From positions 186,001 to 250,000 of the forward strand of contig NZ_JACJSA010000006.1 of NCBI RefSeq assembly GCF_014697545.1: a DNA stretch of 64,000 nucleotides, written 5' to 3'. The notes below the pieces were generated by a model, which was not told where the DNA came from, ran no database searches, and was given only the letters and a program-made list of their open reading frames with translations. Below are positions 41,101 through 57,812 of the stretch, one piece after another. The stretch is from Oscillatoria sp. FACHB-1407 (GTDB taxonomy: Bacteria; Cyanobacteriota; Cyanobacteriia; Elainellales; Elainellaceae). A program made the translations under genes and the position numbers. Within the stretch, counting starts at the first letter, position 1; each line of letters begins with the position of its first letter.

Positions 41101-43980
41101 GCTGACATCCATATCAACTCCGACCATCCGTTCTGGGTTGCCCTGTTCGTCTCGCAACACTTGTCCTCGTGCCAAAATCCAAACGATGGAGCCATCCTTA
41201 TGGAGCATTCGATGTTCGTAAGCGTATTCAGAAGTTTTGCCATCCAGGTGATCTTGAACCGATACCATGACAGCATCGCGATCGTCGGGATGAACGAACG
41301 TCGCCCAATACTCAATGTCATTGGGAATCTCGTCATCGGTGTAGCCTAATAATCCCTTAATCGTGGGATCAAGATAGAAATCATTTGTGCGTAAATTCCA
41401 TTCCCACACGCCGACTTTGGCAGCACGAGTCGCAAGGCTATAGCTTTCCTCTGCTTTCTGTAATGCCTGTTCAGCGAATTTGCGATCGCTAATGTCTGTT
41501 TCAATAATGGTGACAACCGTACATTCAGCCCTTTCATCCCAACGAATGGCTTGAGTTGCAGCAATCCACCGCAGACTACCATCTCTGTGTTGAAACCGAT
41601 ATTCTGTAGCCTGATTGGGTTCAAGTGCTTTCAAATTAGTGGTGGATGTAATCACGCGACCGCGATCTTCAGGGATGACTCGTGACAACCAGAATCCTGG
41701 ATTGGCTTCTAGCTCTTGTCCTGTGTAGCCAAACACCTGCTCATATCCACAAGAGCGATAATCAGTTATCCAGGTTTGATCAGCAAGTTGACGCATACTG
41801 GTAATGGCAGCAGGCGCACTATTGAGAATATCATTGAGCTTGGTTTCAGAAACTTGCAGGGCAAACTCCAGAGCTTTGCGATCGCTAATGTCAGTGGCAA
41901 CACAAGTGACAAACCAACAATCCGCTGCATCGTCGCGCCTTGAAGTTGCCGTTTCGGAGATCCATCGCCAAGAGCCATCCTTTTGCCGAAAGCGAAACTC
42001 GATAGTGACTGATTTCTCGGCAAGCATCTGCTCCAGAGCAGGCAAATGGACATTCCTGGCATCCTCTGGATGCACACAGGAGAGCCATATATTGCCATGC
42101 ATTAACTCCTCAACCGAATAGCCAAAAATTGCCTCACTGCCAGGTGAATAAAATTCATACTGCCAATGCATATCAGCAAATAAGCGAAACTGGGTAATGG
42201 CAGCACCCGCACTATTGAGAACATTGCTGAGTTTCGTTTCTGATTGTTGTAAGGCAATTTCAGCCGTTTTGCGATCGTGAATATCAATATCGACAATTGT
42301 GACTAACCAGGTATGGGTTGTGTCATCCCGCCTGATTTTGATGTGATTAGAAATCCAACGTAGGCTACCGTCTTTGCGATAGAACCGATAAGCCACAGTA
42401 TCAGTAATTTCTTGAGTGATCTGCTCAGGGGGTAAAACTCGGCATAAATCTTCTGGAAAAACACGCGATCGCCACAGGTTCTTATCCGCAAAAAATTCAT
42501 CCTTTGTGTAACCAAACACGGCTTCGCAGCCTGACGACATATATTCATAGTCGTAGTCACCTGTTTCATACACTCGCAAGCTACAAATGGCTGCGATCGC
42601 ACTGTTCAAAATATCTTGTAATTTGGCTTCCGAAGCTTGTAAAGCCAGTTCAAGTTGTTTACGTTCAGTGATGTCACGCACAACGCCTGCAAAACGGTAA
42701 ATATTACCCTGATCGTCATGGATGGGAAAGGTGCGATCCCACACCCAACAAATAGACCCATCCGGGCGAATCCGGCGGTATTCGTCGTTGAAGAAGGTAG
42801 TGCCCTGTTTTGCCTGTTGATATTTAGCCAGAACAAACGCCTGATCATCTGGATGAATTGTCTCTAACCAAATATCGTTGTTCTGGTATGCGGCCCGACG
42901 CGATCGCCCTGAAAACGTCTCGTAGGCAGAGTTAATGTAGATTACTTCGCGCGTCTTAAAGTCTTTTAAGAAGAAGATATCGGGAATATTTTCAATAATC
43001 TGGCGCAGTTGTTCCTCACTTAATTGCAGGGCCAACTCCAATTGTTTGCGATCGCTAATGTCAACGGCTGTTCCTAAAATTTTCGTCGGTTGTCCGGCTT
43101 CATCCCGCTCAAACACCACATCGCGCGATCGCAACCACCGCCAGGAACCATCTTTGTGTCGCATCCGATAGTCGATCTCTAAATACTGTCCATCGGGAAT
43201 GTTGCTCCAACCCTGCATCGATTGTTGAACCCGTGGAAGGTCGTCGGGATGCACACAGTCCCGAAAAACAAGGCTGCCCCATGCTTGGATTTCTGCTGGG
43301 ATGTAGCCCAACATGGTTGTAATCTGGCGGTTTATATAGAGATTTCGCTGTTCAACCAGATCAAAGATGTAGAGCAACTGTGGTGAGCCATCCATCACCC
43401 GTTCAATAAAGTCACGATTGTGTTGCAATTCAGTTTCAGTTTGTTTGCGATCGCTCACATCTAACGCGATCGCTGTTACAAACCAACTATCTGTCTCATC
43501 GTCTGGTTGAGAGATCAACGTGTCACAAATCCAGCGCAAGCTCCCGTCTTTATGATGAAACCGATATTCCATCTGAAAAGACTCTCCTGCAAAGATTCGA
43601 GCGATCGCCGGAGCAATGACCCTATCTACGTCTTCTGCAAATACTCGCGATTTCCAAAGATTTGGGTCTAATTCAAACTCTTGTGACGTGTAGCCAAATA
43701 TTGTTTCTGCTCCAACAGAGCGATATTCATAGTCCCACTCTCGATCTCGATAAACACGAAAACTTGTAATAGCAGCTCCAGCATTATTGCGAATACTGCT
43801 TAGTCTGGTTTCGGCAACCCGATGACGCGCCTGACTATCAGCGAGAGCCGCTTTTAACTCCTGAACCTGTCGTTGTAGATCAGCATTCTGAGCTTGAAGG
43901 GTAGCAATCTGTTCGACGGTATTGTTTGAGCTAGAAGCCATTATGGAATTGTTAGGATCAGGAAATGGTACGGATGACAT
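38125..43980 (-). CDS. Giant multi-PAS sensor histidine kinase (13 PAS domains, HisKA_2)
   Basis: A 1951-residue soluble kinase. After a coiled start, I count 13 PAS/PAC units of about 130 residues, each ending in a DISDRK or DITERK line with a linking helix such as QLELALQ-SE. The tail is a HisKA_2 box with LTEIHHRVKNNLQVISSLLD (phospho-accepting His) and an ATPase domain (LILNELVTNVMKYG, and SIGLTLVQVLTDQL with the G-box). PAS domains 3-4 and 11-12 are close internal copies. There is no membrane segment. PAS domains could bind heme, flavin or bilin, but no cofactor residue is certain. No receiver gene is adjacent. The start is less certain, since the first 14 residues may be skipped. Confidence 0.92.
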   Translation of the reverse strand: MSSVPFPDPNNSIMASSSNNTVEQIATLQAQNADLQRQVQELKAALADSQARHRVAETRLSSIRNNAGAAITSFRVYRDREWDYEYRSVGAETIFGYTSQEFELDPNLWKSRVFAEDVDRVIAPAIARIFAGESFQMEYRFHHKDGSLRWICDTLISQPDDETDSWFVTAIALDVSDRKQTETELQHNRDFIERVMDGSPQLLYIFDLVEQRNLYINRQITTMLGYIPAEIQAWGSLVFRDCVHPDDLPRVQQSMQGWSNIPDGQYLEIDYRMRHKDGSWRWLRSRDVVFERDEAGQPTKILGTAVDISDRKQLELALQLSEEQLRQIIENIPDIFFLKDFKTREVIYINSAYETFSGRSRRAAYQNNDIWLETIHPDDQAFVLAKYQQAKQGTTFFNDEYRRIRPDGSICWVWDRTFPIHDDQGNIYRFAGVVRDITERKQLELALQASEAKLQDILNSAIAAICSLRVYETGDYDYEYMSSGCEAVFGYTKDEFFADKNLWRSRVFPEDLCRVLPPEQITQEITDTVAYRFYRKDGSLRWISNHIKIRRDDTTHTWLVTIVDIDIHDRKTAEIALQQSETKLSNVLNSAGAAITQFRLFADMHWQYEFYSPGSEAIFGYSVEELMHGNIWLSCVHPEDARNVHLPALEQMLAEKSVTIEFRFRQKDGSWRWISETATSRRDDAADCWFVTCVATDISDRKALEFALQVSETKLNDILNSAPAAITSMRQLADQTWITDYRSCGYEQVFGYTGQELEANPGFWLSRVIPEDRGRVITSTTNLKALEPNQATEYRFQHRDGSLRWIAATQAIRWDERAECTVVTIIETDISDRKFAEQALQKAEESYSLATRAAKVGVWEWNLRTNDFYLDPTIKGLLGYTDDEIPNDIEYWATFVHPDDRDAVMVSVQDHLDGKTSEYAYEHRMLHKDGSIVWILARGQVLRDEQGNPERMVGVDMDVSHLKQAEVALQQSEERFREIAQTVSQAFFVHSAATGEYIYISPAYERIWGYSCDTLYQNQKFWLDTVHPDDRPQVLASVAHQCEGNSVQREYRIIRPDGDIRWISAQITLIRDEAGTPLRFIGLAEDISHRKRAEEALRQSEQIFRQAFETSAFGISIRSPEGKYLRVNQTLCQILGYTDVELLQLTYRDVTHPDDLAIAPQQTINKLVTGEIPYYRLEKRFLHKQGHIVWGLISMSVVRDLQQQPLYFVTQVQDITARKATELENLKLRERLQFLIAKTPAAIFTCKVEDDYGATFMSDNIQSILGYKAQEFVQNSEFWMSHVHPDDTSTILAGLDPLFEHGFHTHEYRFLHQDGTYRWMRNGLNLVRDANGKPIEMVGYFIDITDRKQAEDALRLSEELFRQIIENISDVFFLKDAQTGALIYINSAYETVYGRSCQSLYDDPGSWLESIHPDDSAYIQAKYQQELVGQTLFDDEYRLVRADGSIRWIWDRTFPIHDKQGKVYRFAGVTRDITERKRLELALQASETKLNDILNSAIAAISSFRVFANRDWEYEYWSDGCEGIYGYTSQEFMADNHLWLSRIHPDDIEKVILPKYQEIFNESTFLIEFRSYHKDGSLRWVTGSFTSRRDDKNDCWVVTVVNIDITDRKYAEIALRQSQEELRLITNSLPACIAYIDTDRRYRFVNQTYNEWFCLSPEEILGKQIAEVIGEAAYTLAQPYIDQVFTGKTVEYEIEFPYPSGNRYVNAMLVPRIDHITTEVQGYYALVTDISDRKQFEKQLQRSLREKEILLTEIHHRVKNNLQVISSLLDLQANRSQDLHLKMALKISQDRVLSMALVHEALYRLEQFAAMNFAAYAEELIRHLFNTYRSSERRVINHINIDSSINISLDQAVPCGLILNELVTNVMKYGCSDVNTTNLYVSLQRIANTKVQLTVGNEGNTLPTDFNIKRDVSIGLTLVQVLTDQLSGRFEIERGDRTLFKVIFPLDTISR

Positions 43981-44061
43981 GATTTAGTAAGAATAACTAA
44001 GAAACATCGAAGCAATGATGTTCTTTAAAGTTGTGTAGCGTGGGTATTGCCACCTCACCTA

Positions 44062-44156
44062 AGTACAAATCGTCGTCAATCAGGGTGGGAATTTGGGGTG
44101 CAGGGGTGAAACCCCTGGCTGGGGGCACAGCCCCACACTCCCCTGGTTTTATTTCC
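44062..44156 (+). repeat. Dispersed repeat family D, copy 2
   Basis: Nearly the same as 33567-33663 over 95 bp, including CAGGGGTGAAACCCCTGGCT and CCCCTGGTTTTATTTCC. The rest of the 621-bp spacer 43981-44601 holds the MITE copy at 44475 and no gene. Confidence 0.85.
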
Positions 44157-44474
44157 AAACCCTATCTGTGCATAGCAGTACTAGGAATGATGAATTAAAT
44201 AAAATGCAGTTTTTGTGTATGGGTTTAGCATTACCAAACCTATACAGCAAGGAATTCACCCATGTTATTTAATTCGCATTCCTGAGTTTCAGAAACCATG
44301 TTTGAGGTTTTCAGATAGGCTCTTAATACGCTAAAAACTTATTTACCTGACTACTCAATCTACCCTGAGATAGATACATCCATGACTGATGCTCATCAGC
44401 ATTGTAACCTGATCAATTTAATTCGTTGAGGAGGATGTCTGGAAAGCTTTGAGATCTCTTTAGGACTGGGGATT

Positions 44475-44543
44475 TATAGCCGTAGCCACACTCGATGGGG
44501 TTCCTGACTCGCCTCTGTCCTATCGAATGTGGCTACGGCTATA
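44475..44543. mobile_element. MITE-like element, family A, short palindromic form
   Basis: A 69-bp sequence whose ends TATAGCCGTAGCCACACTCG and CGAATGTGGCTACGGCTATA are inverted copies with one mismatch. The internal core of the full-length copies is missing. It overlaps by two bases the terminator of ndhK. Confidence 0.85.
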
Positions 44544-44582
44544 CAAAACAGCACTGGTACTCAGTATCAGTGCTGTTTTGTA
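44542..44582 (-). terminator. Intrinsic terminator downstream of ndhK
   Basis: A perfect 15-bp stem TACAAAACAGCACTG with CAGTGCTGTTTTGTA across an 11-base loop, 20 bp beyond the ndhK stop. The T-run lies inside the stem. Confidence 0.8.
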
Positions 44583-44601
44583 TAACAAGTTGTGGCTTGA
44601 T

Positions 44602-45402
44602 TTACGCTCCTAAATCGGAGGTGCCAATGCCTCGTTCGGCGTTTAAGGGCAATCGCTCTCGATCTCTAACCTTGTCTGACTCATTCGCAGGTTCAGTTGC
44701 CAAAGCTGGAGGAACAGGCATTCCGATCGCCTCTGTAATCTGTTGTGGAGGTTGTTGGCGATCGGGAGCACGCAAGTAGTCACCCGTGTAAATGGGTGAA
44801 ATCGGCTTTAACTGGTGAGGACGGGTGTAATAGCGGTGTGTTTGCCCCACGATGCCTCGCTCTTGCAGGGCTTCGGCTGAGATCTTCTTGCGCAATTTGA
44901 TGATGGCATCCATAATCGCTTCTGGGCGAGGCGGACAACCTGGAATATAAACATCGATCGGCAGGATCTTATCGGCTCCCCGCACCGCAGTGGGAGAGTC
45001 AGCACTAAACATCCCCCCTGTGATCATGCACGCTCCCATAGCAATTACGTATTTGGGGTCTGCCATTTGCTCATACAGACGCAGGGTTGCAGGTGCCATT
45101 TTCATATTTAACGTGCCTGCCAAAATAATCAGATCGGCTTGACGGGGAGATGCCCGTGGAATCAGTCCATAGCGATCGAAATCAAAGCGAGAACCGATCA
45201 GAGCCGCAAATTCAATAAAGCAGCAGGCAGTGCCATACAACAGAGGCCATAGGCTAGACAACCGGGCCCAGTTGTAGAGATCTTCAACCGTCGTCAAAAT
45301 GACATTCTCTGAAAGCTGTTGCGTGATTTGAGGAGGGGATAGCGGATTTTGCAGAGAATCGCGAAACTCTTCAAATTTTCCTGATGGGAGTGAACTGGTC
45401 AT
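44602..45402 (-). CDS. ndhK: NAD(P)H-quinone oxidoreductase subunit K (NDH-1)
   Basis: Carries the iron-sulfur cluster N2 that passes electrons to plastoquinone in the thylakoid NDH-1 complex. The 266 residues from the ATG at 45402 show the two adjacent cysteines in [10 protein letters not shown], the third in [11 protein letters not shown], and the fourth in [32 protein letters not shown] and [10 protein letters not shown] are also present. The long C-terminus ([13 protein letters not shown]) is normal for cyanobacteria. In most cyanobacteria ndhK sits in an ndhC-ndhK-ndhJ operon. Here neither partner is next to it; psaB lies upstream instead. Confidence 0.95.
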
Positions 45403-45659
45403 AGCAATAAATTCAGAGATGAAGGGCTGACTTTCAATGGGAAGGGAATGGTTGATTGTGTAGGGGCGATCGCCCCTCAATGAAACTCCTAATCAGGATG
45501 ATGACTTTAGACGGGTCTGATAGGATGACGAGGCGATCGAGCCATTGCGTCCCTATCTGTATTCAAAAACAACTTCATCGATCTAGCGTCTACCTTTGAG
45601 CTAGTCTTGCTCCATTGTGTAAAAACAGTGTGGTAAGCAATTGTCGAGAGAGTTGAGAC

Positions 45660-45721
45660 AAGGTGAGACAAGGGGGTATGGGGGCTGTGCTGCCAGCTAG
45701 GGGTTCCCTCCCGCACTCCGC
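45660..45721 (-). repeat. Dispersed repeat family D, inverted copy
   Basis: On the minus strand GGAACCCCTAGCTGG and CAGCACAGCCCCCATACCC match the core of the copies at 33567 and 44062. It lies in the psaB-ndhK spacer. Confidence 0.65.
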
Positions 45722-45751
45722 CCTAACCAACCCTCGGCTATATAAACACCG

Positions 45752-45785
45752 GAATCGTTGTGAAGCCTCAGCCCCACAACGATTC
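45752..45785 (-). terminator. Probable terminator of psaB
   Basis: An 11-bp stem GAATCGTTGTG / CACAACGATTC with a 12-base loop, 28 bp beyond the psaB stop. The T-run is weak. Confidence 0.6.
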
Positions 45786-45812
45786 ATTCATACAGAAGCG
45801 TTAGGAGTCAGG

Positions 45813-48041
45813 TCACGGGAATCGACTCGCCGTCGATGACAGCAAGAACGCCGCGTAGGTGAGGATATAGCCAACGGTGAAGTGCGCGAGCCCCACTAAC
45901 CATCCCTGAACAATCGACAGAGCCACAGGCTTATCCTTCCAGCGCACCAGGTTTGCCAGTGGAGTCCGCTCGTGTGCCCATACCAGCGTTTCAATGAGTT
46001 CTTGCCAGTAACCTCTCCAGGCAATCAGGAACATAAACCCAGTTGCCCAAACGAGGTGTCCAAACAGGAACATCCAATCCCAAACAGCCTGATTATTCAT
46101 CCCAAAGGGATTGTAACCATTGATGACTGGAGCCGAATACAACCACAGATAGTCGCGCAACCAACCCATGATGTAGGTCGAAGACTCGTTGAATTGAGCG
46201 ACGTTGCCCTGCCAGATGCCGAGGTGTTTCCAATGGAAGTAGAAGGTCACCCAGCCCAGCGTATTCAACATCCAGAAGGTTGCCAGATAGAAGGATTGCT
46301 CCCAAGCAGCTGTTTGACAAGTGCCACCTCGACCGGGACCATCGCAAGGGAAGGTGAAGCCAAAGTCCTTTTTATCTGGAAAAAGCTTCGATCCGCGTGC
46401 GTCCAGTGCCCCTTTCACACAGATCAGAGTGGTGACGTGCAGACCCAGGGCGATCGCATGGTGAATGAGGAAATCACCCGGACCAATAGTCAAAAATAGG
46501 GAATTTGCCCCACTATTAATGGCATCTAACCAACCTGGAAGCCAGACGTTGCCGTGGTTAGGCCAGGCGGTTGTGGCAATGCTGTCAGGATTGGACAACA
46601 ACGTGTCGAAGCCGTACAACACTTTGCCATGAGCCGCTTGAATAAATTGAGCAAAAACGGGTTCAACTAAGATCTGCTTTTCAGGTGTGCCAAAAGCAAC
46701 CACGACATCATTGTGGACATAAAGCCCCAGGGTGTGGAATCCCAGGAACAACGACACCCAGCTTAAGTGCGAAATAATCGCTTCTTTATGATTAAGCACC
46801 CGCTCTAACACGTTGCCTTTATTCTGAGCGGGGTCATAATCCCGTATCCAGAAAATGGCACCGTGAGCAAATGCCCCAATCATTAAGAAACCTGCAATGT
46901 ACTGGTGATGGGTGTAAAGTGCAGCCTGTGTGGTGAAGTCCTTTGCCATGAAAGCATAAGGCGGCATGGAATACATGTGCTGCGCCACCAGAGATAAGGC
47001 AACTCCCAGAGCCGCTAAGTGAATGCCGAGTTGAAAGTGCAGAGAGTTGTTGTAGGTGTCATATAAGCCGTGGTGGGGTAAATTGAACTGCCCTTCAACT
47101 CGCTGACCAAAGAAGTTTTTGGCATCCAACATTTCTTTGATGCTGTGACCGATGCCAAAGTTGGTGCGATACATGTGACCTGCAACGATGAAGATAACGG
47201 CGATCGCCAAATGGTGATGCGCCATATCCGTCAACCACAGCGACTGAGTCTGGGGATGAAAGCCTCCCAAAAACGTGAGAATTGCAGTTCCGGCTCCATC
47301 GGCGGTGTTAAACACGTGGTCAAGGGTATCCGGATTCTCCGCGTAAGCTCCCCAGTTTCCGGTGAAGAAGGGTCTGAGTCCCTCTGGGTGGGGCGGTGTG
47401 AATAGAAAATTGTTCCAGCCTACATGCTGTCCTCGCGATTCGGGAATCGCAACGTGAATCAGGTGTCCTGCCCAGGCTAAAGAGCTAACACCAAACAGAC
47501 CTGCTAAATGGTGGTTTAACCGAGACTCGGCATTTTTAAACCAGGACAGAGAAGGACGAAACCTGGGCTGAAGATGCAACCACCCCGCAAACAGGAAGAT
47601 GGATGCTAACACCAGGAGAAACAGCGCACCCGTATACAATTCGCCGTTGGTTCGCATCCCAATGGTGTACCACCAGTGATAAACCCCTGAGTAGGCGATG
47701 TTGACCGGGTAGGAGGCTCCACCTTGTGTGAAAGCCTCAACCGCAGGTTTGCCAAAATGAGGGTCCCAAATGGCGTGGGCGATCGGGCGAATATGCAGTG
47801 GGTCTTGGCTCCAGGTTTCAAAATTACCCTGCCAAGCGACATGAAACAATAAACTAGAAGTCCATAGAAAAATAATTGCAACGTGACCAAAGTGAGAGGC
47901 AAAAATCTTTTGGTAAAGGTTTTCCTCAGTCATCCCGTCGTGACTTTCAAAGTCATGGGCAGTGGCGATGCCATACCAAATTCGACGGGTTGTTGGATCT
48001 TGAGCAATGTCTTGACTAAATTTCGGAAATTTTGTTGCCAT
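45813..48041 (-). CDS. psaB: Photosystem I core protein PsaB (solitary, divergent copy)
   Basis: One of the two large photosystem I reaction-centre subunits. The 742 residues follow PsaB from [11 protein letters not shown] to the end, with many histidines in transmembrane helices for chlorophyll binding. The Fx cluster loop [12 protein letters not shown] with both cysteine ligands, the P700 histidine region [15 protein letters not shown], and the quinone-site line [17 protein letters not shown] are present. psaA is normally directly upstream; here it is absent. Several segments differ from the usual form, for example [21 protein letters not shown], and [18 protein letters not shown] (one residue longer than the usual loop). 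A second, solitary psaB is known in some filamentous cyanobacteria, so this may be such a paralogue. Confidence 0.93.
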
Positions 48042-48501
48042 ATTGTCTGGCTACCTCATTCGTTTAGTGAAGCCAATGCGCCTAAAGCTGAACTACAGTT
48101 AAGCTGCTCAACGATAAACGGTTTAAGCTCGACCCTTAAAAATACAGAATTTGGATAGCCAACAATGGGAGTGCTCAATCGAGGCACTCCTGGCTAACAC
48201 CAACTGAATCAAAGCGTGCATAGAATTGAGTCCTGAAGGACAAAAAGCTTACACTTTTTGCTCTATGTCGCTTTATAAAGAATTGGTATTAGTTGGCTTA
48301 AAATTTGGACTACCAACACTCTGTAATTACATGCCGATTAATTCATAACCTTATCGGTTGCTCTCTTTCCTCATCTCTAACTAAAGGCAGAGGTTGGTAA
48401 ATTTGAACGTGAAGACTTTCGTGTTTTAACGCACACCGATGGTCTTTAGAGATAGATACATTGAACTCAATTCCAGCACTTCAGAAGATGAACATCACTC
48501 G
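48042..48501. other. Intergenic region upstream of psaB, 460 bp
   Basis: Separates psaB from the co-directional TIR gene. psaB probably has its own promoter here. A GAGGTAG word lies about 12 bases before the psaB start. I see no other element. Confidence 0.4.
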
Positions 48502-51500
48502 TTAGCCAATCATTTTGTCTGAAGCGACTCCCAGAGATTTATTGTCGGTAGATTTGGGCTTCTGTCGAGAGAGTAAAAACACGGCTGTGACCATCAGGAG
48601 CACTAACAGAACGATCGCGATCGTTGTAATCCGGTTGTATGAGTCAAATTCCTCTGTTAATACTGACTCTGGCATCACTACGACCAGATTCCAGTCGAGA
48701 TTACGAATAGGATTAATGGCAACCCGATATTTCACCTCTGACTCTGAGTCTTCATGTTTAAAGATTTGTTGTGCCTTGATGTGTTCTAACGAAACTTGAT
48801 TCTTCCGAAAAACTTGACTGGCATATTGAGCAAGGGGGTTTTCAACCTCATCCAGTGTCACTAGATCGGGGATATCCCGTTCTGTTGAGGTAAAACCAAG
48901 ATCCCGAGGATCGCTCGATGCAATCAACTCACCTTTGGGAGTGATGATAAATAGTGCCCCAGGTTGCCCTTGTTGCAACCGTTCTAGCAAAACTGACAAT
49001 TGCCTGAGTTCGATCGCAATGCTAATCACTCCCAATAACTGATTTTGCTTCTGTACAGTCACAGAGGAGTCAATCCCAGGCGTTTGGGTCGAGGCGAACA
49101 TGTAGACATCCGTCCAGGTTTGATAACCCGGATTGCCGACAGCAGATCGATACCAGGGACGCTGAGGAGAGTAGTAGTTTTCGGGTGTGGAGAGCGTCTC
49201 TACGAACTCAAAGGTGTCGTCAACTCGACGATAGGATTCTACCGTGCGCGTTGCTCGTTGCGCTTGAGGATCGTAATCTCGGTTAATGATATTAATGTTG
49301 CCTTCCTGGGTGTGTTGTAGACCGAAATAATCCCCATTGGCAAAGCCAAATTGAATCCAGTTCAAATTGGGATGCGCTTTTGCCAGCGTCATGTAAAAGA
49401 TTTCCAGTTCTTCCTTATTGTTGAGATCAACCAGATCATCGGTAAATGCTTTTTGGATGATCTGTTGGGTTGATCCCACCTGGCTAAACAGCGTGCCAAT
49501 TTCACGGGAGATAGCGGGAACCGTGCTTTTGAGCCACAATTCTACTGCGCTATCGACCATTTTTTGGGCGACCAATCGTGCTCCGACCCATACCGTCGCG
49601 CCAACCACCACCGTTGCCCCCAGGACCACCCACCCTACCCGCACTATTTGTTGTGCTCGTGCTCCTGCCTGTGCCAGACGCTGATTGGCAGCTTCAACTT
49701 CGCGGCTTTTTCTGATGTAGTTTTGGTGGAGTTCCGTTGGTTCTGGTTGCTTGGTGTTGCTTTTGTCCAACCACTGCTCTGCCTCTGACAGATCGTCCCC
49801 CCGCAATAACAGGCTATCACTGCGTCCTTTGTTATCCCACTCGATCGCCCTGACCAAAAGCCAGGTGTGAGCTTTGAGGTGAGCCGCATCGGTGTCTAAC
49901 ACGCGCAGCAGGTCTTTGAAGTTAGACGAAAAATCACCATCTCGTCCGTTAAAGTCGAGCCACTGAACTTTGGCTAATTCAGGATGCAGATTGGCTGGGT
50001 TAATGGGGCGATGGAGGACTGTCACAAAGCGTTTATTGAGTTTGGCAGCGTATTCAACCTCATCAGCACAGTAGGGCGAGTTGATGGAACTGGGTGACAG
50101 AATGAAGAGGAAATGGTTTGCTGTTTCGATGCCGCGATAAATCTCCTGTTGAAAGTCAGTGCCTGAGGCGATGCTTTCCTGGTCAAACCAGGTGTTTTTG
50201 CCCTGCATTTGCAATGCCTCATTCAGTTGACGGGCAAACCCGGAATCGGCACGCGAGTAAGAGATAAAGACATCAACTGCGATGCCGGGGGGTTGTCGCT
50301 GGCTCTCAGCAATGAACTTTTCCTGGAGTGGGGTGCTGGGCGATCGCGGATGGTGTTTTGCCAGCTTAAGCCACGCCTCGGCATGGCGCAGGTTATAGCC
50401 CCGTAACAAAAAGGTGGGGTTGTAGTTGTGTCGCTCCCATTTGAATGCTTTGGTCAACAAGACCTTGTGGTCTTCGTGATAAGCGACATCCTGTCGTAGT
50501 GCCCGTAGCAGTTGGTTTTCGTCGTGTTGATAGTCGGTTTCTAACAGGTTGTCGGTGAGATCGATGTATTGCAGGTTGCGGAGTGTAGGGGGTAGCTGCT
50601 GGGGGTCGATCGCCTCCACTAAAATTGGCACAATTCGCTTGTTGAGTGACAAGGCGTAGTCAATTTCGAGTTGGCAGTAATAGGATGTGAGGGAACGCGG
50701 AGAGAGCAAATATACAATATTATTGGCTTCTTCAATTCCTCGTTTGATGGCGTTTTCAAAATCAACTCCGGTCTGAATATCGGTAGTGTTGATCCAGACG
50801 GTGAATGCCTCCCGCAGCAAACTGGAGCGAATCTTTTTGGCAATGTCGCGATCTTCTGTGGCATAGGACAAGAACACCTGAGTCATCAGGTTCTCACCGT
50901 TTTTGATGCTCTCAGTGATGAATTCGCAATGCAACTCAGTGGGAGTGCAGGGAGGTTGGGAGTCGGTGAAACGAGTTTTCAGCCAGGTTTCGGCGTGTTG
51001 ACGGTCTTCACCCACTAACAAGTATTGCGATCGCCGCTGATTTTCTTCCCACTCCAGTGCTTTCGCCAGGAATTGCGTGTGCTGATGCACATAGTCGTGG
51101 TGGCGATCGAAGATGGTCAGTAACCCCTTTAAAGATTCCTGAAAGTCATCTTGATTTTCCCGGAAGTAGACCCAGTTGATCTTCGAGATTTCGGGATGCA
51201 TATTGATGAAGCTGGAGTGTAACCCTTTGGCTTGATAGGTTTCCCAATCTGCATCGGTGCCTGTGGGGTTACGTTGTTGCCAGGTTTCACGGCTGATCTC
51301 GGCAACATGCATGAGAGGAATAATGCGCTTATTCCGTTTCAATGCGAGTTCGATTTCCAGGCGACAGTAGGGCGAATTGACGGAATGGGGCGAGATGATG
51401 AAGAGAAAGTTGTCAGCCCGATTGATGCCGTCGTCGATTTGTTTTTGATAGTCCACTCCTAATGGAATGTCATCAAAGTCAAACCAGACGGTTAGCCCTT

Positions 51501-51588
51501 GCTCTACTAAGTGATGGTGAAGCTGGGCAGCAAAAGCTTTGCTGTCTGCTCGACCATAGGAAATAAATGCATCCTGGAATCCTTGCAT
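48502..51588 (-). CDS. Transmembrane receptor with three TIR domains and an extracytoplasmic Cache sensor
   Basis: A 1028-residue protein. TIR1 (about 5-160) has FISYGRADS and YCRLEIE with Glu78. TIR2 (about 235-365) has FLSYATEDRD and YCQLEID with Glu308. TIR3 (about 438-565) has FISYSRADS and YCADEVE with Glu510. After each comes a helical block of the kind KALEWE...LL-G-D-x-x-AE-WL. A membrane segment (VGWVVLGATVVVGATVWVGA, 651-672) leads into a periplasmic double-Cache domain (IQFGFANGDYFGLQ, YYSPQRPWYRSAVGNPGY, WTDVY). A second membrane segment (IAIVLLVLLMVTAVFLLS) and a short tail follow. TIR domains in bacteria often degrade NAD+, and the glutamates are in the catalytic position. The architecture suggests ligand-gated NADase or nucleotide signalling, which is inferred. 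Confidence 0.88.
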   Translation of the reverse strand: MQGFQDAFISYGRADSKAFAAQLHHHLVEQGLTVWFDFDDIPLGVDYQKQIDDGINRADNFLFIISPHSVNSPYCRLEIELALKRNKRIIPLMHVAEISRETWQQRNPTGTDADWETYQAKGLHSSFINMHPEISKINWVYFRENQDDFQESLKGLLTIFDRHHDYVHQHTQFLAKALEWEENQRRSQYLLVGEDRQHAETWLKTRFTDSQPPCTPTELHCEFITESIKNGENLMTQVFLSYATEDRDIAKKIRSSLLREAFTVWINTTDIQTGVDFENAIKRGIEEANNIVYLLSPRSLTSYYCQLEIDYALSLNKRIVPILVEAIDPQQLPPTLRNLQYIDLTDNLLETDYQHDENQLLRALRQDVAYHEDHKVLLTKAFKWERHNYNPTFLLRGYNLRHAEAWLKLAKHHPRSPSTPLQEKFIAESQRQPPGIAVDVFISYSRADSGFARQLNEALQMQGKNTWFDQESIASGTDFQQEIYRGIETANHFLFILSPSSINSPYCADEVEYAAKLNKRFVTVLHRPINPANLHPELAKVQWLDFNGRDGDFSSNFKDLLRVLDTDAAHLKAHTWLLVRAIEWDNKGRSDSLLLRGDDLSEAEQWLDKSNTKQPEPTELHQNYIRKSREVEAANQRLAQAGARAQQIVRVGWVVLGATVVVGATVWVGARLVAQKMVDSAVELWLKSTVPAISREIGTLFSQVGSTQQIIQKAFTDDLVDLNNKEELEIFYMTLAKAHPNLNWIQFGFANGDYFGLQHTQEGNINIINRDYDPQAQRATRTVESYRRVDDTFEFVETLSTPENYYSPQRPWYRSAVGNPGYQTWTDVYMFASTQTPGIDSSVTVQKQNQLLGVISIAIELRQLSVLLERLQQGQPGALFIITPKGELIASSDPRDLGFTSTERDIPDLVTLDEVENPLAQYASQVFRKNQVSLEHIKAQQIFKHEDSESEVKYRVAINPIRNLDWNLVVVMPESVLTEEFDSYNRITTIAIVLLVLLMVTAVFLLSRQKPKSTDNKSLGVASDKMIG

Positions 51589-52413
51589 AGAAAATCACCC
51601 CAAGATAGACACTCTTAATCGCACGATAACCTCTCCTGAGGGAAATGTCATTTGTGCGCTCTGATAAATAAGTATTGCTGAAGTGTCTATGTAATTTACA
51701 ATACAACTACTTTATAGAATTCCCAGATTTACGGACAAAATAATCGTGCCTCCGTAATTTAACTGAGGCATAACTAACTTGCTTAAGATCCCCCTAGTCC
51801 ATATTCAGGGAAACTTTTTCGCAAGCTTCACTCAACCCTCATCCCCCAACCTCTTTTCGGCATTGCTGAATGCAGATATGATTCTCGAAAACCAGCCATC
51901 GCTGTACGGGCGTTTCGCGAAACGCCCCTCCGAAATTTATATGTTGGATCAGCAACACCCTCTTTTCTTCACTTGAGAGAAGGGAAGTCAGAGTGGCTTG
52001 AAATCCCTCTTCCAAAATGGGGCTACGGTGTACACACATCTTTGCTTTGTCCATAAGATAGCCGCGAATTCATTTGCCGGGTTCAGTCGCGCAATCACTA
52101 GATGCACCCATCAAGACCCCTAACAAAGGCTCAAAGTCCCCCGAAGTTAGGGAATTTAGGGGTCTGGGACGGTTACGGTTTCAATTTCCCTAGGAAGACC
52201 ATTTCAATCCAAAAAAAAGTGGCATTTTTGCATAAAGCCTTCTCGAACTTGCGAGAAATAATCACAGTTCATTCAGCCCCCTGACACCATTCATCTTGAA
52301 GCAGCTACCAACCCAAATCGAGGATCTCTATCCAGATATCCAGGGTTTTGATGTGGCTTGATTGACCTGGCTTTCTCCATTGCACTTGTTTCATTTTGTG
52401 AAGGCAGGCAACT
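51589..52413. other. Intergenic region between TIR receptor and calpain genes, 825 bp
   Basis: Promoters of two divergent genes and several repeats. There is a perfect 20-bp palindrome at 51908, a TCATCCCCCAACCTCTTTTC repeat near 51840, and at 52020 the word GGCTACGGTGTACACA, which is one end of the element at 55906-56066. Short frames in this stretch overlap these repeats and do not look like genes. Confidence 0.55.
51908..51927. repeat. Perfect 20-bp palindrome, copy 1
   Basis: GGGCGTTTCGCGAAACGCCC is its own reverse complement. The same palindrome with flanking CCTC/CCTA occurs at 62354-62373. It may be a cruciform-forming dispersed repeat. Confidence 0.9.
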
Positions 52414-54546
52414 ATGCAATCTAAATTTCGAGTTCTAGAGCGTTCTAATACCTTACGTGCTAATTCTCTTCAATCCCATCGTTCTTCTCAATCAGCCTTA
52501 CCTCTCGATCTGTCCTCTGATCTCGGCACCTCACAACGCCATGCAAGAGGGTTTCGAGCCAGTGCGGCAAACCAGTTTTCATCTAGCAAGTCAAATCCTC
52601 GCGATCGCTCTGAAAGAGGCTTTTTAGAGACTTCAACGATAGTTGCTAACAACGTTAGCCATACATTACCAATATCTGATTTGGTTGTTTCAGATTTAGT
52701 TTTTAATGACCTGGTGTTTTTACCGTTAGCGGATAACTCGATGAGTGAAGCTAACAATTTAGGAACCCTTGGTAGTTCAGTCCGCTCTAATGGGTTTGTT
52801 GGTGGCACTGACTCACAAGACTATTTTCGGTTTAGTAATACAACCGCAGGACGGTTTAATTTATCACTCACAGGTATGTCTGCGGATGCAGATGTGCAAC
52901 TCTTAAATAGCAGTGGGGCGATCGTTGCGTCTTCATCGAGGGGTAGTACAGGAGATGAATCGATTAACCTTGCCTCGCTAAGTATTGGCGATTACTACGT
53001 TCGGGTTTATCAATTCAATGGCGACACCAACTACACGTTGAGGATGTCGAACACATTCCCCAGTAACCTATTGCCTGCTGAGACGAGTCTGGGCACGCTC
53101 AACGGTACGCGCGTTTTCAGTAATTCTGTAGGCAGTAGTGATACAGCTGATGTGTATCAGTTTAATCTGGCAGGGACAGCCAATCGCTTTAACATCACAC
53201 TGAGTGGCTTATCCAGTGATGCCGATGTCCGCCTAATTTGGGATGGCAACAGTAACGGCAGAATTGACACAGATGAAGTGTTGGGTCGATCTACGGCTGG
53301 TAGCCAAGCTTCTGAGTGGATTGGCACGCCCCTCAATGCTGGCAACTACTTCGTTCAGGTGTATCAGTTTAGCGGTGAGGCAAACTACAACCTCAGCGTT
53401 TCAACCGGAGACTGGTACAACGAACACCTCAGTGATGCGGGGGTGATTGGTCAGGCGCGTGCTCTCTATTGGACAGATGGTTCCCTCAGCCGCAATGACA
53501 TGATCTCCATGTTCCGTGAGGTGCAAGACCAGAGCAGTATTGATTCCACAGAATTGCAAGATCTGCGAAAGGTTGTGAATCCTTCGACGGGCTTCTCAAT
53601 GCCTGATTATGTGCGAAATTTGTCCAACAAAGTTGTAAATGGTGATCCGGCAAACCCTCGTTCTGGTATCGGCAACCTGTCTGCGGGGAGCAGTAGCAAC
53701 CAGATGGAGCGGTTGATTGGTAAGTGGTTCTTAGGGAGCGATCGCCCCACAGCCATTTCCTACAATCGCACCATAACCCACGGCTACCGTTATCTACAAG
53801 GCTCCCTCTTCCAAAACGGCATTAGCTTTGAAGATGTCGATCAAAACGATATTGGCGACTGCTATTTCATGGCAGCACTAGGCGCAGCGGCATTTCGATC
53901 GCCCAGTACGATTCAAAATATGTTTATCGATAATGGTGACGGCACCTTTACCGTGCGTTTCTATCGAGATGGTGTAGCGGATTACCTCACCGTCGATCGA
54001 TTTGTTCCCACAGATAGTTCGGGGAATGCGGTGTTTGCCGGATGGGGGGGTGGCGTCAACACCGAAGCTAACAATGAGTTGTGGGTTGCCCTCGCCGAAA
54101 AAGCCTATGCTCAACTCAATGAATCGGGCTGGATTGGTCAAGACAATACCAACTCCTACAACGGTTTAACGCTCTCAACAACGGCGGTATCCACGAATAG
54201 CGGCGGTATCAACGGCGGTTGGGCAGGCAATGGATTGCGCCATATCACCGGACGCAATACCGAAAATCGAGATGTTTCCTGGCGCGATTGGTGGAGTCTG
54301 TTTATCACCACCTCAAACGATCTCGATCGCATCATCAGTACCTTTAACGCAGGGCGCATGGTGACGCTGAGTACAAAAGACTCAGGCGTGGAATCGGGTG
54401 TTGTCGCGAATCACGTCTACACGATGGTGGGATATAACGCATCGACGCAGCGGTTCCGGCTCTATAACCCCTGGGGTAACACGGTTGAGCTAACTCGCAA
54501 CCAGATCGTCAATAACTTTGAGGATTGGGACTACACCACCACCTGA
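52414..54546 (+). CDS. Calpain-like cysteine protease with two PPC domains
   Basis: A 710-residue protein of the C2 (calpain) peptidase family. Residues 1-110 are polar and disordered. Two pre-peptidase C-terminal (PPC) domains follow at about 117-210 and 220-335 (GTDSQDYFRFS, GDYYVRVYQFNGDTNYTLR; DVYQFNLAG, GNYFVQVYQFSGEANYNLS). A linker precedes the catalytic domain (about 470-705). The active site is Cys483 in GDCYFMAALG, His667 in ANHVYTMVGY and Asn685 in LYNPWG. Calpains make limited cuts in proteins and in other systems act downstream of sensors. PPC domains usually mark exported proteases, but no signal peptide is visible, so its location is open. It is flanked by TIR genes on both sides. 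Confidence 0.88.
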   Translation: MQSKFRVLERSNTLRANSLQSHRSSQSALPLDLSSDLGTSQRHARGFRASAANQFSSSKSNPRDRSERGFLETSTIVANNVSHTLPISDLVVSDLVFNDLVFLPLADNSMSEANNLGTLGSSVRSNGFVGGTDSQDYFRFSNTTAGRFNLSLTGMSADADVQLLNSSGAIVASSSRGSTGDESINLASLSIGDYYVRVYQFNGDTNYTLRMSNTFPSNLLPAETSLGTLNGTRVFSNSVGSSDTADVYQFNLAGTANRFNITLSGLSSDADVRLIWDGNSNGRIDTDEVLGRSTAGSQASEWIGTPLNAGNYFVQVYQFSGEANYNLSVSTGDWYNEHLSDAGVIGQARALYWTDGSLSRNDMISMFREVQDQSSIDSTELQDLRKVVNPSTGFSMPDYVRNLSNKVVNGDPANPRSGIGNLSAGSSSNQMERLIGKWFLGSDRPTAISYNRTITHGYRYLQGSLFQNGISFEDVDQNDIGDCYFMAALGAAAFRSPSTIQNMFIDNGDGTFTVRFYRDGVADYLTVDRFVPTDSSGNAVFAGWGGGVNTEANNELWVALAEKAYAQLNESGWIGQDNTNSYNGLTLSTTAVSTNSGGINGGWAGNGLRHITGRNTENRDVSWRDWWSLFITTSNDLDRIISTFNAGRMVTLSTKDSGVESGVVANHVYTMVGYNASTQRFRLYNPWGNTVELTRNQIVNNFEDWDYTTT

Positions 54547-54662
54547 TAGAACGGGCGAAGCATTGATGCCAGGATTAATGGATTCAAATCTAAATTTGAG
54601 ACATTAATGCTTTGCCCCTCCAGCGATCGCCCCAGTTGCACTGACAACCCGACGAGGCACCG

Positions 54663-55073
54663 ATGACGTACTTAATGAATGGTATGCACTCAATCAATGG
54701 TATTACGATCGCATCTGTTACTCTGACAGCCCGTGAAGAACGATCAACCCCGCGTGGGCAGGTTCCTTCTGGCGATCGCGATATTGGTTTTGCCGATGTG
54801 TTTCTGCAATTGCACAATGCTCGCAGAACGCATGTGGAGGTCGTGATTCAATCCGTTGAAATTTGTCACGCCTGTTTCAATGTGCGGCAGATGGTGAGCC
54901 AGTCCCCGCAAACTATTTGCTTGCATCCAATGGAGAATGCCAGCGTCGATCTCCACCTGACTAACAAAACGGGGTATAGCAGAGGGAGCCGGGTTCGAGC
55001 GGTGATCCGCTATCAGGTTGAGGGGCAGGTAGGAGTGGTTGAATCGGAACCTGTGGCGATCGAGCGATGGTAG
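54663..55073 (+). CDS. Hypothetical protein, 136 aa
   Basis: A 136-residue frame after the calpain gene (117 bp gap) on the same strand. It is beta-rich (INGITIASVTLTAREERS, HVEVVIQSVEICHACFNV, ASVDLHLTNKTGYS, VRAVIRYQVEGQVGVVES) with a pattern like an immunoglobulin or fibronectin-like sandwich. It has a C-x-x-C in ICHACF, and a further cysteine later. I do not recognise a family. It could be an inhibitor or partner of the protease, but this is guesswork from position. No signal peptide is visible. Confidence 0.55.
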   Translation: MTYLMNGMHSINGITIASVTLTAREERSTPRGQVPSGDRDIGFADVFLQLHNARRTHVEVVIQSVEICHACFNVRQMVSQSPQTICLHPMENASVDLHLTNKTGYSRGSRVRAVIRYQVEGQVGVVESEPVAIERW

Positions 55074-55218
55074 GAGGGTATGGGGATGATCGCTCATGAT
55101 CGTTGAAAGTTAGCCTGTGATACTTTAGACCATCAGCGATGATATCTATCATTCCCCATCCGGGAAATAGGTTGGTTAACCCAATTATTGCAACCATTGC
55201 AATCAACGTTAGACACGT

Positions 55219-55470
55219 TTGAACGAGAGTTACTCTGATTCAAACGATTGCAGCAATTGTTTATATCTTTCTAGCTTTTGCTTAAACGAAACTTATACTT
55301 GCTTGAACGAGAGTTACTCTGATTCAAACGATTGCAGCAATTGTTTATATCTTTCTAGCTTTTGCTTAAACGAAACTTATACTTGTTTGAACGAGAGTTA
55401 CTTTCGTTTGAACGATTGCAGCTAATGCTTATATCTTTCTAGCTTTTGCTTAAACGGAGCTTATATATCA
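55219..55470. repeat. 84-bp tandem repeat, three copies
   Basis: Units start at 55219, 55303 and 55387 with TTGAACGAGAGTTAC. Copies 1 and 2 differ at about one base, while copy 3 is more diverged. The unit has no stop in one frame (84 is a multiple of 3), giving a 28-residue repeat, but the composition is not convincing as a gene. Its role is not known. Confidence 0.92.
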
Positions 55471-55561
55471 AGAAGCCGAAGCAACAACGGTTCAACGTCA
55501 GTTCGGTTTAAGAGCTAATTTATGAAGTCAATCTTAAGCTCTAAAACATCTGCTATTGCTT

Positions 55562-55643
55562 GATCCCCCCAACCCCCCTTAACAAGGGGGGAACCCAAGC
55601 AGGAGTCTGAAGTCCCCCTTTTGAAGGGGGATTTAGGGGGATC
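55562..55643. repeat. Palindromic GATCCCCC element, second copy
   Basis: GATCCCCCCAACCCCCCTTA opens and GATTTAGGGGGATC closes an 82-bp structure related to 22777-22846. It also contains inner GGGGG/CCCCC blocks. Confidence 0.75.
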
Positions 55644-55838
55644 GAAACAATCGACGCGGACTACGAAAGATGAAGGGTTTGATGAACCGACGCAGGTTGG
55701 TTTTGCTTCGATAGCGGCGGTTTTAACCGCCAAAATCCTTATCCCAAATTCACGTTAATGTTAGGGCCTAACTGTATTGACTCACCGGGTTATCCCAAAG
55801 ACTACCAAGCTCACACAAGAATACTCTGGACAGTTTTT

Positions 55839-55943
55839 ATGAAAAATCTGAAAACCTGCATTGTGCCGTTAGCATTGACCCTCACCCTAAATTCCCTCCC
55901 AATTGGGGCTACGGTGCATACAAAAGTTCTCTCAGCCCCCTAA
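55839..55943 (+). pseudogene. Truncated secreted-protein gene (signal peptide only)
   Basis: From the ATG at 55839 the frame gives MKNLKTCIVPLALTLTLNSL, a good signal peptide, then enters the repeat at 55906 and stops about a dozen residues later. The native part is therefore only about 22 residues. It is probably the start of a secreted protein whose rest was lost or displaced by the repeat element. Confidence 0.4.
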
Positions 55944-56066
55944 ATCCCCCATTCTGGGGGACTTTGAGCCATATGAGGCGGATCGGAAGTCCCCCAATTT
56001 TGGGGGGTTGGGGGGCAAATGCAGGATTTTGAGGTTGAGACAAGAGATATGTATACACCGTAGCCC
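55906..56066. mobile_element. MITE-like element, 161 bp, with GGGCTACGGTGYATAC ends
   Basis: Left end GGGCTACGGTGCATAC and right end GTATACACCGTAGCCC are inverted with one mismatch. Inside are two C/G-rich blocks (CCCCCTAAATCCCCC, GGGGGGTTGGGGGGC). A solitary end of the same kind is at 52020-52035. It interrupts the gene at 55839. Confidence 0.75.
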
Positions 56067-56252: not shown

Positions 56253-57812
56253 ATGAGTCAACAGACTAAGCCCGTCGAAGTTTTTATCTCCTACTCGCAC
56301 CGAGATGAAAAGTTGCGAGAAAGACTGGACTCCCATCTGTCGCTGTTGCGACGGCAGGAAGTAATTCAAGCGTGGCACGATCGCAAGATTACGGCAGGCT
56401 CCGAGTGGGCAGGGGCGATCGACGATAAGTTGAACTCGGCGGATATTATTCTGTTGTTGATCAGTGACCAGTTTCTTGCATCGGACTATTGCTACGGCAT
56501 CGAGATGCAACGGGCAATGGAGCGGCACGAAGCCAAAGAGGCGTGTGTCATTCCGATTATTCTCAAGCCTGTGGACTGGAGTAGTGCGCCCTTTGCCAAA
56601 TTGCAGGCATTTCCCAAGGATGCCAAGCCTGTTACTAAGTGGAACAATCGGGATGAGGCGTTTCTCAACATCGCCAAGGGGATTCGGGAAGCCGCAGAGA
56701 CAATTGCTGCCCGGCCGCAAAAGCCATCCCCTGAACCAGAGCCAGTTCCATCCCCAGATCTCTCGGAAGCCATCACCGTTATCCCGCCCGATCGCCTCGA
56801 CCTGCCGGAGGGTTCCGTTGGCTTAAACTCCCCTCTGTACGTGGAACGTCCGCCGATTGAGGCAAACTGTTATGGCGAGATTGTCAAACCGGGGGCACTG
56901 ATTCGCATCAAAGCTCCCCGACAGTGGGGCAAGACTTCCTTGATGCAGCGGATTTTGCAGCGATCGCGCGAGCATGGACACCGCACCGTCTGCCTCAACC
57001 TGCAACTGGTGGATGGCGACTCCCTCACCAGCATCGATCGCCTGTTGCAGTGGCTCTGTGCCAGTGTCGCCAATGAGCTAAATCTGGATGACCGTCTCTC
57101 GGACGTGTGGAAGCCGATGCTGGGCAGCAAGAGCAACTGCACCAACTATTTCCAACGCTACCTGTTGCCGACGATTCAGCAACCGCTGACCCTGGGACTG
57201 GATGAGGTGGATCAGGTGTTTCAACATCTGGATGTGGCGCAGGACTTTTTTGGCTTGCTGCGGGCGTGGCACGAGATGAGCAAAAACGACCCCACCTGGC
57301 AGCGGTTAGGACTGGTGATTGCCCACTCCAGGGAGGTCTACATTCCCTTGAATGTGGAGCACTCGCCGTTTAATGTGGGGTTGCCGACGGAGTTGCCGGA
57401 GTTCACCTCCCAACAGGTGATCCATCTGGTGCAGCGGCACGGCTTGAGATGGTCAGAGCCGCAGATCGCCCAACTGCTTGAGATGGTGTCGGGGCATCCC
57501 TATCTGGTGCGAAAGGCATTGTATGAGATGGCACGAGGCATGACGCTGGAACGCTTTTTGCAAACGGCTCCCACCGAAGCAGGACTGTACGGGGATCACC
57601 TGCGGCGACACCTGGAGAACCTGCACAGCGACCCGCAACTGGCAACGGCCATGAAGCAGGTGGTGAGCACACCGGGAGCCGTCGGACTGGAGCCAAAGCT
57701 GGGCTTTCGGCTGCACAGTATGGGCTTAGTGCGCTTGCAGGATGATGAAGTGATTGCCCTGTGTCACCTCTATCGCCTGTACTTCGCGAAACGGTTGGGG
57801 GGACGGGCATGA
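56253..57812 (+). CDS. TIR-AAA ATPase fusion
   Basis: A 519-residue protein. The N-terminal TIR domain (about 7-140) has [12 protein letters not shown] and [16 protein letters not shown] with Glu84 in the catalytic position. A proline/glutamate linker (about 157-180) follows, then a P-loop ATPase of the AAA-like type ([16 protein letters not shown], 220-234; Walker B-like [12 protein letters not shown], 312-323; a sensor-like [13 protein letters not shown]). The winged helical end is [23 protein letters not shown] domains in bacteria use NAD+ as substrate and the ATPase is expected to switch it on. The stop overlaps the next gene's start by four bases (ATGA), so the two are translationally coupled. 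Confidence 0.88.

What the first reader, a model, noticed from the sequence alone, without database searches (positions are those of the whole stretch)
48502..51588. Toll-like architecture: three TIR domains, membrane segment and an extracytoplasmic Cache sensor
Seen: three TIR domains with a Glu in the YC-x-x-E position (Glu78, Glu308, Glu510), a membrane segment, a large loop with Cache features and a second membrane segment. Known: TIR domains in bacteria act as NADases or make nucleotide signals, and Cache domains bind small ligands outside the cell. Inferred: an outside ligand controls intracellular NAD+ cleavage, a rare receptor layout for bacterial TIR proteins.
Basis: partly seen in the sequence, partly recalled or inferred. 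Interest (0 to 1): 0.82.

Follow-up and report, generated by a model that had tools for sequence, protein, structure and literature searches.

The report
Triple-TIR membrane receptor with Cache sensor
A cyanobacterial protein carries three TIR (immune-type, probably NAD-cutting) domains joined through the membrane to an outside Cache sensor, one of several sensors that have been plugged onto the same triple-TIR unit, which points to a bacterial counterpart of Toll-type receptors.

Summary
The gene is the MINUS-strand ORF 48502-51588 (1028 aa): three TIR domains, each with the catalytic-type Glu (78, 308, 510), a helical linker, TM1, a double Cache domain, TM2 and a short tail. The three TIRs form a conserved unit (54-89% identity among ten proteins) whose C-terminal part is exchangeable. 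Of 66 distinct relatives collected, 37 carry WD40, 21 CHASE2, 2 dCache (this one and a truncated one), 6 none/unknown. This genome alone has all three kinds. 63 of 66 have a hydrophobic segment 66-122 residues after the last TIR, with positive-inside charge in 53 of 63. So the receptor layout is the rule in this family; only the dCache version is rare, and the two dCache proteins are separate grafts. Cache polarity is reversed: 15 of 15 other scored own-genome Cache ORFs have it N-terminal. TIR1's Glu never varies, TIR3's is often lost, suggesting TIR1 is the core enzyme. The Cache lacks the Asp that marks amino-acid and amine sensors. Most likely an outside small molecule gates TIR NAD+ cleavage; activity, ligand and output are inferred. 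[quoted passage not shown]

The parts
48502..51588 (-). whole gene, 1028 aa, triple TIR - linker - TM - dCache - TM
51085..51579 (-). TIR1 (aa 4-168), with its own ~30-residue insertion
   Evidence: catalytic-type Glu78 at 51355-51357
51199..51300 (-). TIR1-specific insertion (aa 97-130, EISRETWQQRNP..NM), strongly conserved among relatives
   Evidence: alignments and invariant columns
50473..50889 (-). TIR2 (aa 234-372)
   Evidence: Glu308 at 50665-50667
49879..50283 (-). TIR3 (aa 436-570)
   Evidence: Glu510 at 50059-50061
49648..49878 (-). helical linker (aa 571-647), of the kind that also follows TIR1 and TIR2
   Evidence: sequence; helices in the model
49591..49647 (-). TM1 (aa 648-666)
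   Evidence: hydropathy 1.97
48634..49563 (-). dCache-type extracytoplasmic sensor (aa 676-985)
48574..48630 (-). TM2 (aa 987-1005), followed by a 23-residue basic tail without HAMP
   Evidence: hydropathy 2.92, charges before +1/-4, after +4/-1

Best explanation
A transmembrane receptor-enzyme. Shown by sequence: a triple-TIR unit, a helical linker, a membrane segment and a double Cache sensor beyond the membrane, closed by a second membrane segment. Inferred: a small molecule binding the Cache changes the dimer; the change travels up the long N-terminal Cache helix and TM1 (not down TM2 through a HAMP, as in ordinary Cache receptors) and re-packs the TIR array. TIR1, whose catalytic-type Glu never varies in the family, then cleaves NAD+, with TIR2 and TIR3 completing or holding the composite active sites. 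The result is NAD+ depletion or an ADP-ribose-type signal that stops or kills the cell. The same triple-TIR unit has been fitted with WD40, CHASE2 and, at least twice separately, dCache sensors.
For: Domains. Cassette conservation and sensor swap. Topology: (63 of 66 with TM; N-side more positive in 53 of 63; query's TM2 charges clear, its TM1 charges only +2 versus +1 net). Glu conservation. TIR3 matches NADase TIRs by sequence (Cat1 E 4e-8, AbTIR 5e-6, SARM1 2e-5), and the full-length model matches SARM1-type chains first. Same-genome Cache relatives at 41% (L101, dCache-HAMP) and 37% (L102, dCache-HAMP-histidine kinase) identity. Reversed polarity: Cache match starts at residue 21-170 in 15 of 15 other own-genome ORFs scored, at about 658 here (the query's ORF is cut 145 residues short in that locus, so 513+145).
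Against: No activity or ligand data exist. The structure models are poor in the Cache (mean pLDDT 54 alone; 59 for the whole protein). dCache_1 is below Pfam's gathering score. A TIR fold does not prove NADase activity; many TIRs are scaffolds. The Cache binding site lacks two of the five known pocket residues, so it might be degenerate. The charge bias at the query's own TM1 is weak.
Confidence: 0.55

Rival explanations
1. The TIRs make a specific nucleotide signal (cyclic ADP-ribose type) for a separate effector, as in Thoeris, rather than depleting NAD+.
For: The closest named NCBIfam model is Thoeris type III ThcB4 (114.4 bits, cut-off 220). TIR1 has a conserved insertion that could shape a product.
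Against: No STALD (PF18185) match in the genome, but nothing rang in the control genomes either, so this is not evidence of absence. No effector gene beside it: neighbours are a PsaB-like gene and a calpain-like peptidase.
Confidence: 0.25
2. The TIR array is mainly a scaffold that recruits other TIR proteins of the cell; catalysis is secondary.
For: 48 TIR matches in this genome; TIR2 and TIR3 lose the Glu in some relatives.
Against: TIR1's Glu is never replaced where it can be read (63 of 65, the other two unreadable), which a pure scaffold would not need.
Confidence: 0.15
3. The Cache is a dead graft used only for dimerisation or membrane anchoring.
For: Only 2 dCache versions found; D146 and D173 of the PctA pocket are Phe831 and Ala858 here (alignment).
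Against: Y805, R810, W812, Y813 and Y829 are kept, and the nearest same-genome relatives, in ordinary receptor layouts, have the same pocket type.
Confidence: 0.15

Closest known systems
Metazoan Toll and Toll-like receptors
   Same: sensor outside, membrane helix, TIR inside; mollusc Tolls with tandem TIRs are reported (PMC4929906, start of abstract in a search listing)
   Different: reversed order, two membrane segments, no LRR match, Cache ectodomain, three TIRs with catalytic-type Glu
dCache_1 receptors (chemoreceptors such as PctA, sensor kinases, cyclases, phosphatases)
   Same: double Cache between two membrane segments; R-x-W-Y pocket motif
   Different: output lies N-terminal of TM1, no HAMP, output is TIR; D146 and D173 of PctA not kept
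Bacterial TIR NADases and Thoeris TIR proteins
   Same: TIR_2 fold and YCxxE Glu
   Different: three TIRs in one chain, membrane-bound, no partner effector gene seen beside it; below the NCBIfam cut-off for ThcB4
Cyanobacterial triple-TIR WD40 and CHASE2 proteins (this work: e.g. L028, L029, L030 in the same genome)
   Same: same triple-TIR unit, linker and TM1
   Different: sensor module differs

Membership tests
Toll-like receptor | TIR domain | tested here: met
Toll-like receptor | LRR ectodomain | tested here: not met
   no LRR family at E up to 0.1; ectodomain is Cache
Toll-like receptor | single membrane span with TIR C-terminal | tested here: not met
   two segments, TIRs N-terminal
dCache_1 (PF02743) | score at or above Pfam's gathering score | tested here: not met
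   38.4 against 45
dCache_1 (PF02743) | profile kinship to solved double-Cache domains, and close relatives over the cut-off | tested here: met
   (E 2.4e-19 to PctA); L101, L103, L104 over the cut-off, L102 not
dCache_1AA / dCache_1AM ligand subfamilies | Asp equivalent to PctA D173 | tested here: not met
   Ala858 in the alignment; role of D173 from passages of PMC10104139 and PMC7584622
TIR NADase | TIR fold with catalytic-type Glu | tested here: met
TIR NADase | NAD+ cleavage | not testable with these tools
   needs an assay
Thoeris (ThsB/ThcB4) | curated ThcB4 score | tested here: not met
   114.4 against 220
Thoeris (ThsB/ThcB4) | adjacent effector gene | tested here: not met
   flanking genes

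The most novel reading that the evidence does not exclude
A family of bacterial Toll-type receptors: a constant cytoplasmic triple-TIR NADase, always tethered through the membrane, onto which evolution swaps outside sensors (dCache, CHASE2 and even WD40 propellers that would then sit in the periplasm), so that chemical or protein cues outside the cell directly gate NAD+ destruction. Signal passes through TM1 against the usual Cache polarity, and TIR1 is the obligatory enzyme.
Probability: 0.4. Interest if true: 0.8.

Novelty: new variant of a known kind. Interest (0 to 1): 0.62.

Why it matters
Known bacterial TIR systems (recalled: Thoeris, CBASS, SPARTA) are triggered from inside the cell. 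A TIR enzyme behind an outside small-molecule sensor would let external chemistry trigger NAD+ loss, and would be a bacterial parallel, reached by domain shuffling, to Toll-type receptors. It is directly testable: the Cache can be screened for ligands on its own and the single-gene receptor can be expressed in E. coli. The swap of WD40, CHASE2 and dCache on one unit also says that the membrane tether, not the sensor type, is the constant part.

Tried and rejected
So the Cache was folded alone (pLDDT 54) and the whole protein with six cassette relatives (pLDDT 59). The Cache fold therefore rests on profiles and only weakly on Foldseek of the poor model (the first 19 hits, those at E<=0.001, are extracytoplasmic sensor domains or chemoreceptors, nearly all Cache, but TM-scores are only 0.19-0.31 by query).

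An operon partner was looked for and not found: the gene on the same strand downstream looks like psaB, and the one upstream, divergent, is a calpain-like peptidase. No Rfam match in 44000-56000.

The single-TIR proteins with TM - ~180 aa loop - TM (L034:3954-5321 in this genome, L088, L100, L183, L185, L189) looked like a second TIR-Cache family; profile comparison with the Cache alignment gave probability 7.9% and no PDB sensor match, so this is not claimed.

STALD search was uninformative.

Counts to read with care: the 66 relatives were picked from listings, with extra fetching of ORFs of about 1050-1130 aa, so the CHASE2 share is not a population frequency. WD40 was called by sequence patterns for most, by Pfam for 9 of 37. 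CHASE2 was called by a model built here from five proteins; Pfam confirmed the three of those 21 that it was given (L024, L030; L071). One search scored only the two best candidates per genome, so single-TIR dCache fusions could be missed there. Of 82 multi-TIR frames, 16 copies or near copies were dropped before counting. In one search two of the 15 Cache matches (L062, L063) are weak and partial.

Full report
CHECK. The coordinates hold a single 1028-codon frame on the minus strand. Pfam gives three TIR_2 domains and a Cache region that scores just under the dCache_1 gathering score and just over that of MCP-like_PDC_1. Glu78, 308 and 510 are all in YC-x-x-E. There are exactly two hydrophobic segments, 648-666 and 987-1005. 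The Cache region is 41% identical to L101, a dCache-HAMP protein of the same genome, and 37% to L102, a dCache-HAMP-histidine kinase; a profile of 21 sequences hits PctA and other solved double-Cache sensors (E 2.4e-19). Folded without relatives it is a poor model (pLDDT 54), yet its 19 Foldseek hits at E<=0.001 are extracytoplasmic sensor domains or chemoreceptors, nearly all Cache.

THE GENOME. The window lies in an 8.1 Mb genome with 48 TIR_2 matches and 20 dCache_1 matches; one open frame has both. Three other triple-TIR proteins are present: L028 and L029 with WD40 and L030 with CHASE2.

THE FAMILY. Ten triple-TIR proteins share the first ~640 residues at 54-89% identity. Searching 60 relatives, 388 class genomes and the genome-contig collection and fetching chosen hits gave 66 distinct multi-TIR proteins: WD40 37, CHASE2 21, dCache 2, none or unknown 6. 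In one search, 75 listed matches span at least 500 of 1079 positions (my count of the listing); only two run into the Cache: this one and G038:C860 (L094, cut by the contig end). In the order search, where up to 36 candidates per genome were scored, only this one of 36 genomes does. A tree of 66 cassettes over 645 columns needs two changes for dCache, and starred branches force two; the two proteins are 51% identical over the TIR part but 23% over the Cache. So dCache was grafted at least twice.

TOPOLOGY. 63 of 66 have a hydrophobic segment 66-122 residues after the last TIR (the misses are L025 and two frames cut by contig ends); the 15 residues before it are more positive than those after in 53 of 63, equal in 6. 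For CHASE2 it is 21 of 21, for the WD40 proteins as labelled it is 22 of 31. In the query itself TM1 is nearly neutral in this test (net +2 before, +1 after) but TM2 is clear (+1/-4 before, +4/-1 after). This places TIRs inside and sensors outside; for the WD40 proteins it would put the propeller outside, which is less certain.

POLARITY. In 15 of 15 other own-genome Cache ORFs scored, the Cache match starts at residue 21-170, ahead of the output (two of the 15 are weak partial matches); here it starts at about 658 and nothing but a 23-residue tail follows TM2. Signal must pass through TM1 (inference).

CATALYSIS. Over the 65 three-TIR proteins the Glu is kept in TIR1 63 of 65 (two have no residue to read), in TIR2 60 of 65, in TIR3 53 of 65 with 11 replaced and one absent; nine of the 11 are CHASE2 proteins (the five-TIR protein L071 is not in these counts). 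L094 itself has lost TIR2's Glu (K). TIR1 also has a conserved insertion (aa 97-130). By sequence TIR3 resembles NADase TIRs (Cat1, AbTIR, SARM1). Inference: TIR1 is the obligatory enzyme, TIR2 and TIR3 help build or hold active sites.

LIGAND. Against PctA (alignment) the Cache keeps the residues equivalent to Y121, R126, W128, Y129 and Y144 (Y805, R810, W812, Y813, Y829) but has F831 for D146 and A858 for D173 (PctA numbers counted by me from the alignment, anchored on the residues the papers name). D173 contacts ligands in both amino-acid and amine receptors (PMC10104139, passages), and the five-residue set R126, W128, Y144, D146, D173 marks the AI-2-type pocket (PMC7584622, passages). So an amino acid, amine or AI-2 is not predicted; the ligand is open. 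L094's Cache does have an Asp at the D173 place by eye.

LITERATURE. Searches for TIR with Cache, dCache, CHASE2, WD40 and multiple TIRs found no description of this layout (open-licence PMC only). In PMC8195603 (passages) the variable C-terminal domains, CHASE2 included, belong to a caspase protein, not a TIR one. The TIR survey PMC7075850 (passages) says bacterial groups have diverse architectures; 'cache' and 'wd40' do not occur in it. PMC7517822 and PMC7159879 were seen as passages only.

VERDICT. Architecture: near certain. Receptor topology: likely. Small-molecule-gated NAD+ cleavage: the best guess, untested. A rare dCache variant of a recurrent membrane-bound triple-TIR family for which my searches found no description.

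Noticed in passing
window 56253-57812 and 57761-60673, + strand: A second TIR protein close by: TIR-AAA_35 (519 aa), overlapped by an AAA_35-TPR gene (970 aa); looks like a two-gene STAND-type system.
   Followed up: partly
L071 283-4845 (G043): A five-TIR protein with CHASE2 (1520 aa); TIR4 lacks the Glu.
   Followed up: partly
L034 3954-5321 (own genome), L088, L100, L183, L185, L189: Single TIR - linker - TM - ~180 aa loop - TM proteins; the loop is conserved but matches nothing known.
   Followed up: partly
L037 6599-8185 and 8488-10164 (own genome): Two neighbouring TIR proteins with seven predicted hydrophobic segments after the TIR.
   Followed up: no
window 38125-43980, - strand: 1951-aa protein with 12 PAS_3 stretches and HisKA_2.
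   Followed up: no
window 45813-48041, - strand: PsaB-like protein (read from the sequence, no family search) with no psaA-like frame seen beside it.
   Followed up: no
L026 and L175: Two triple-TIR genes next to each other on one contig, suggesting tandem duplication.
   Followed up: no
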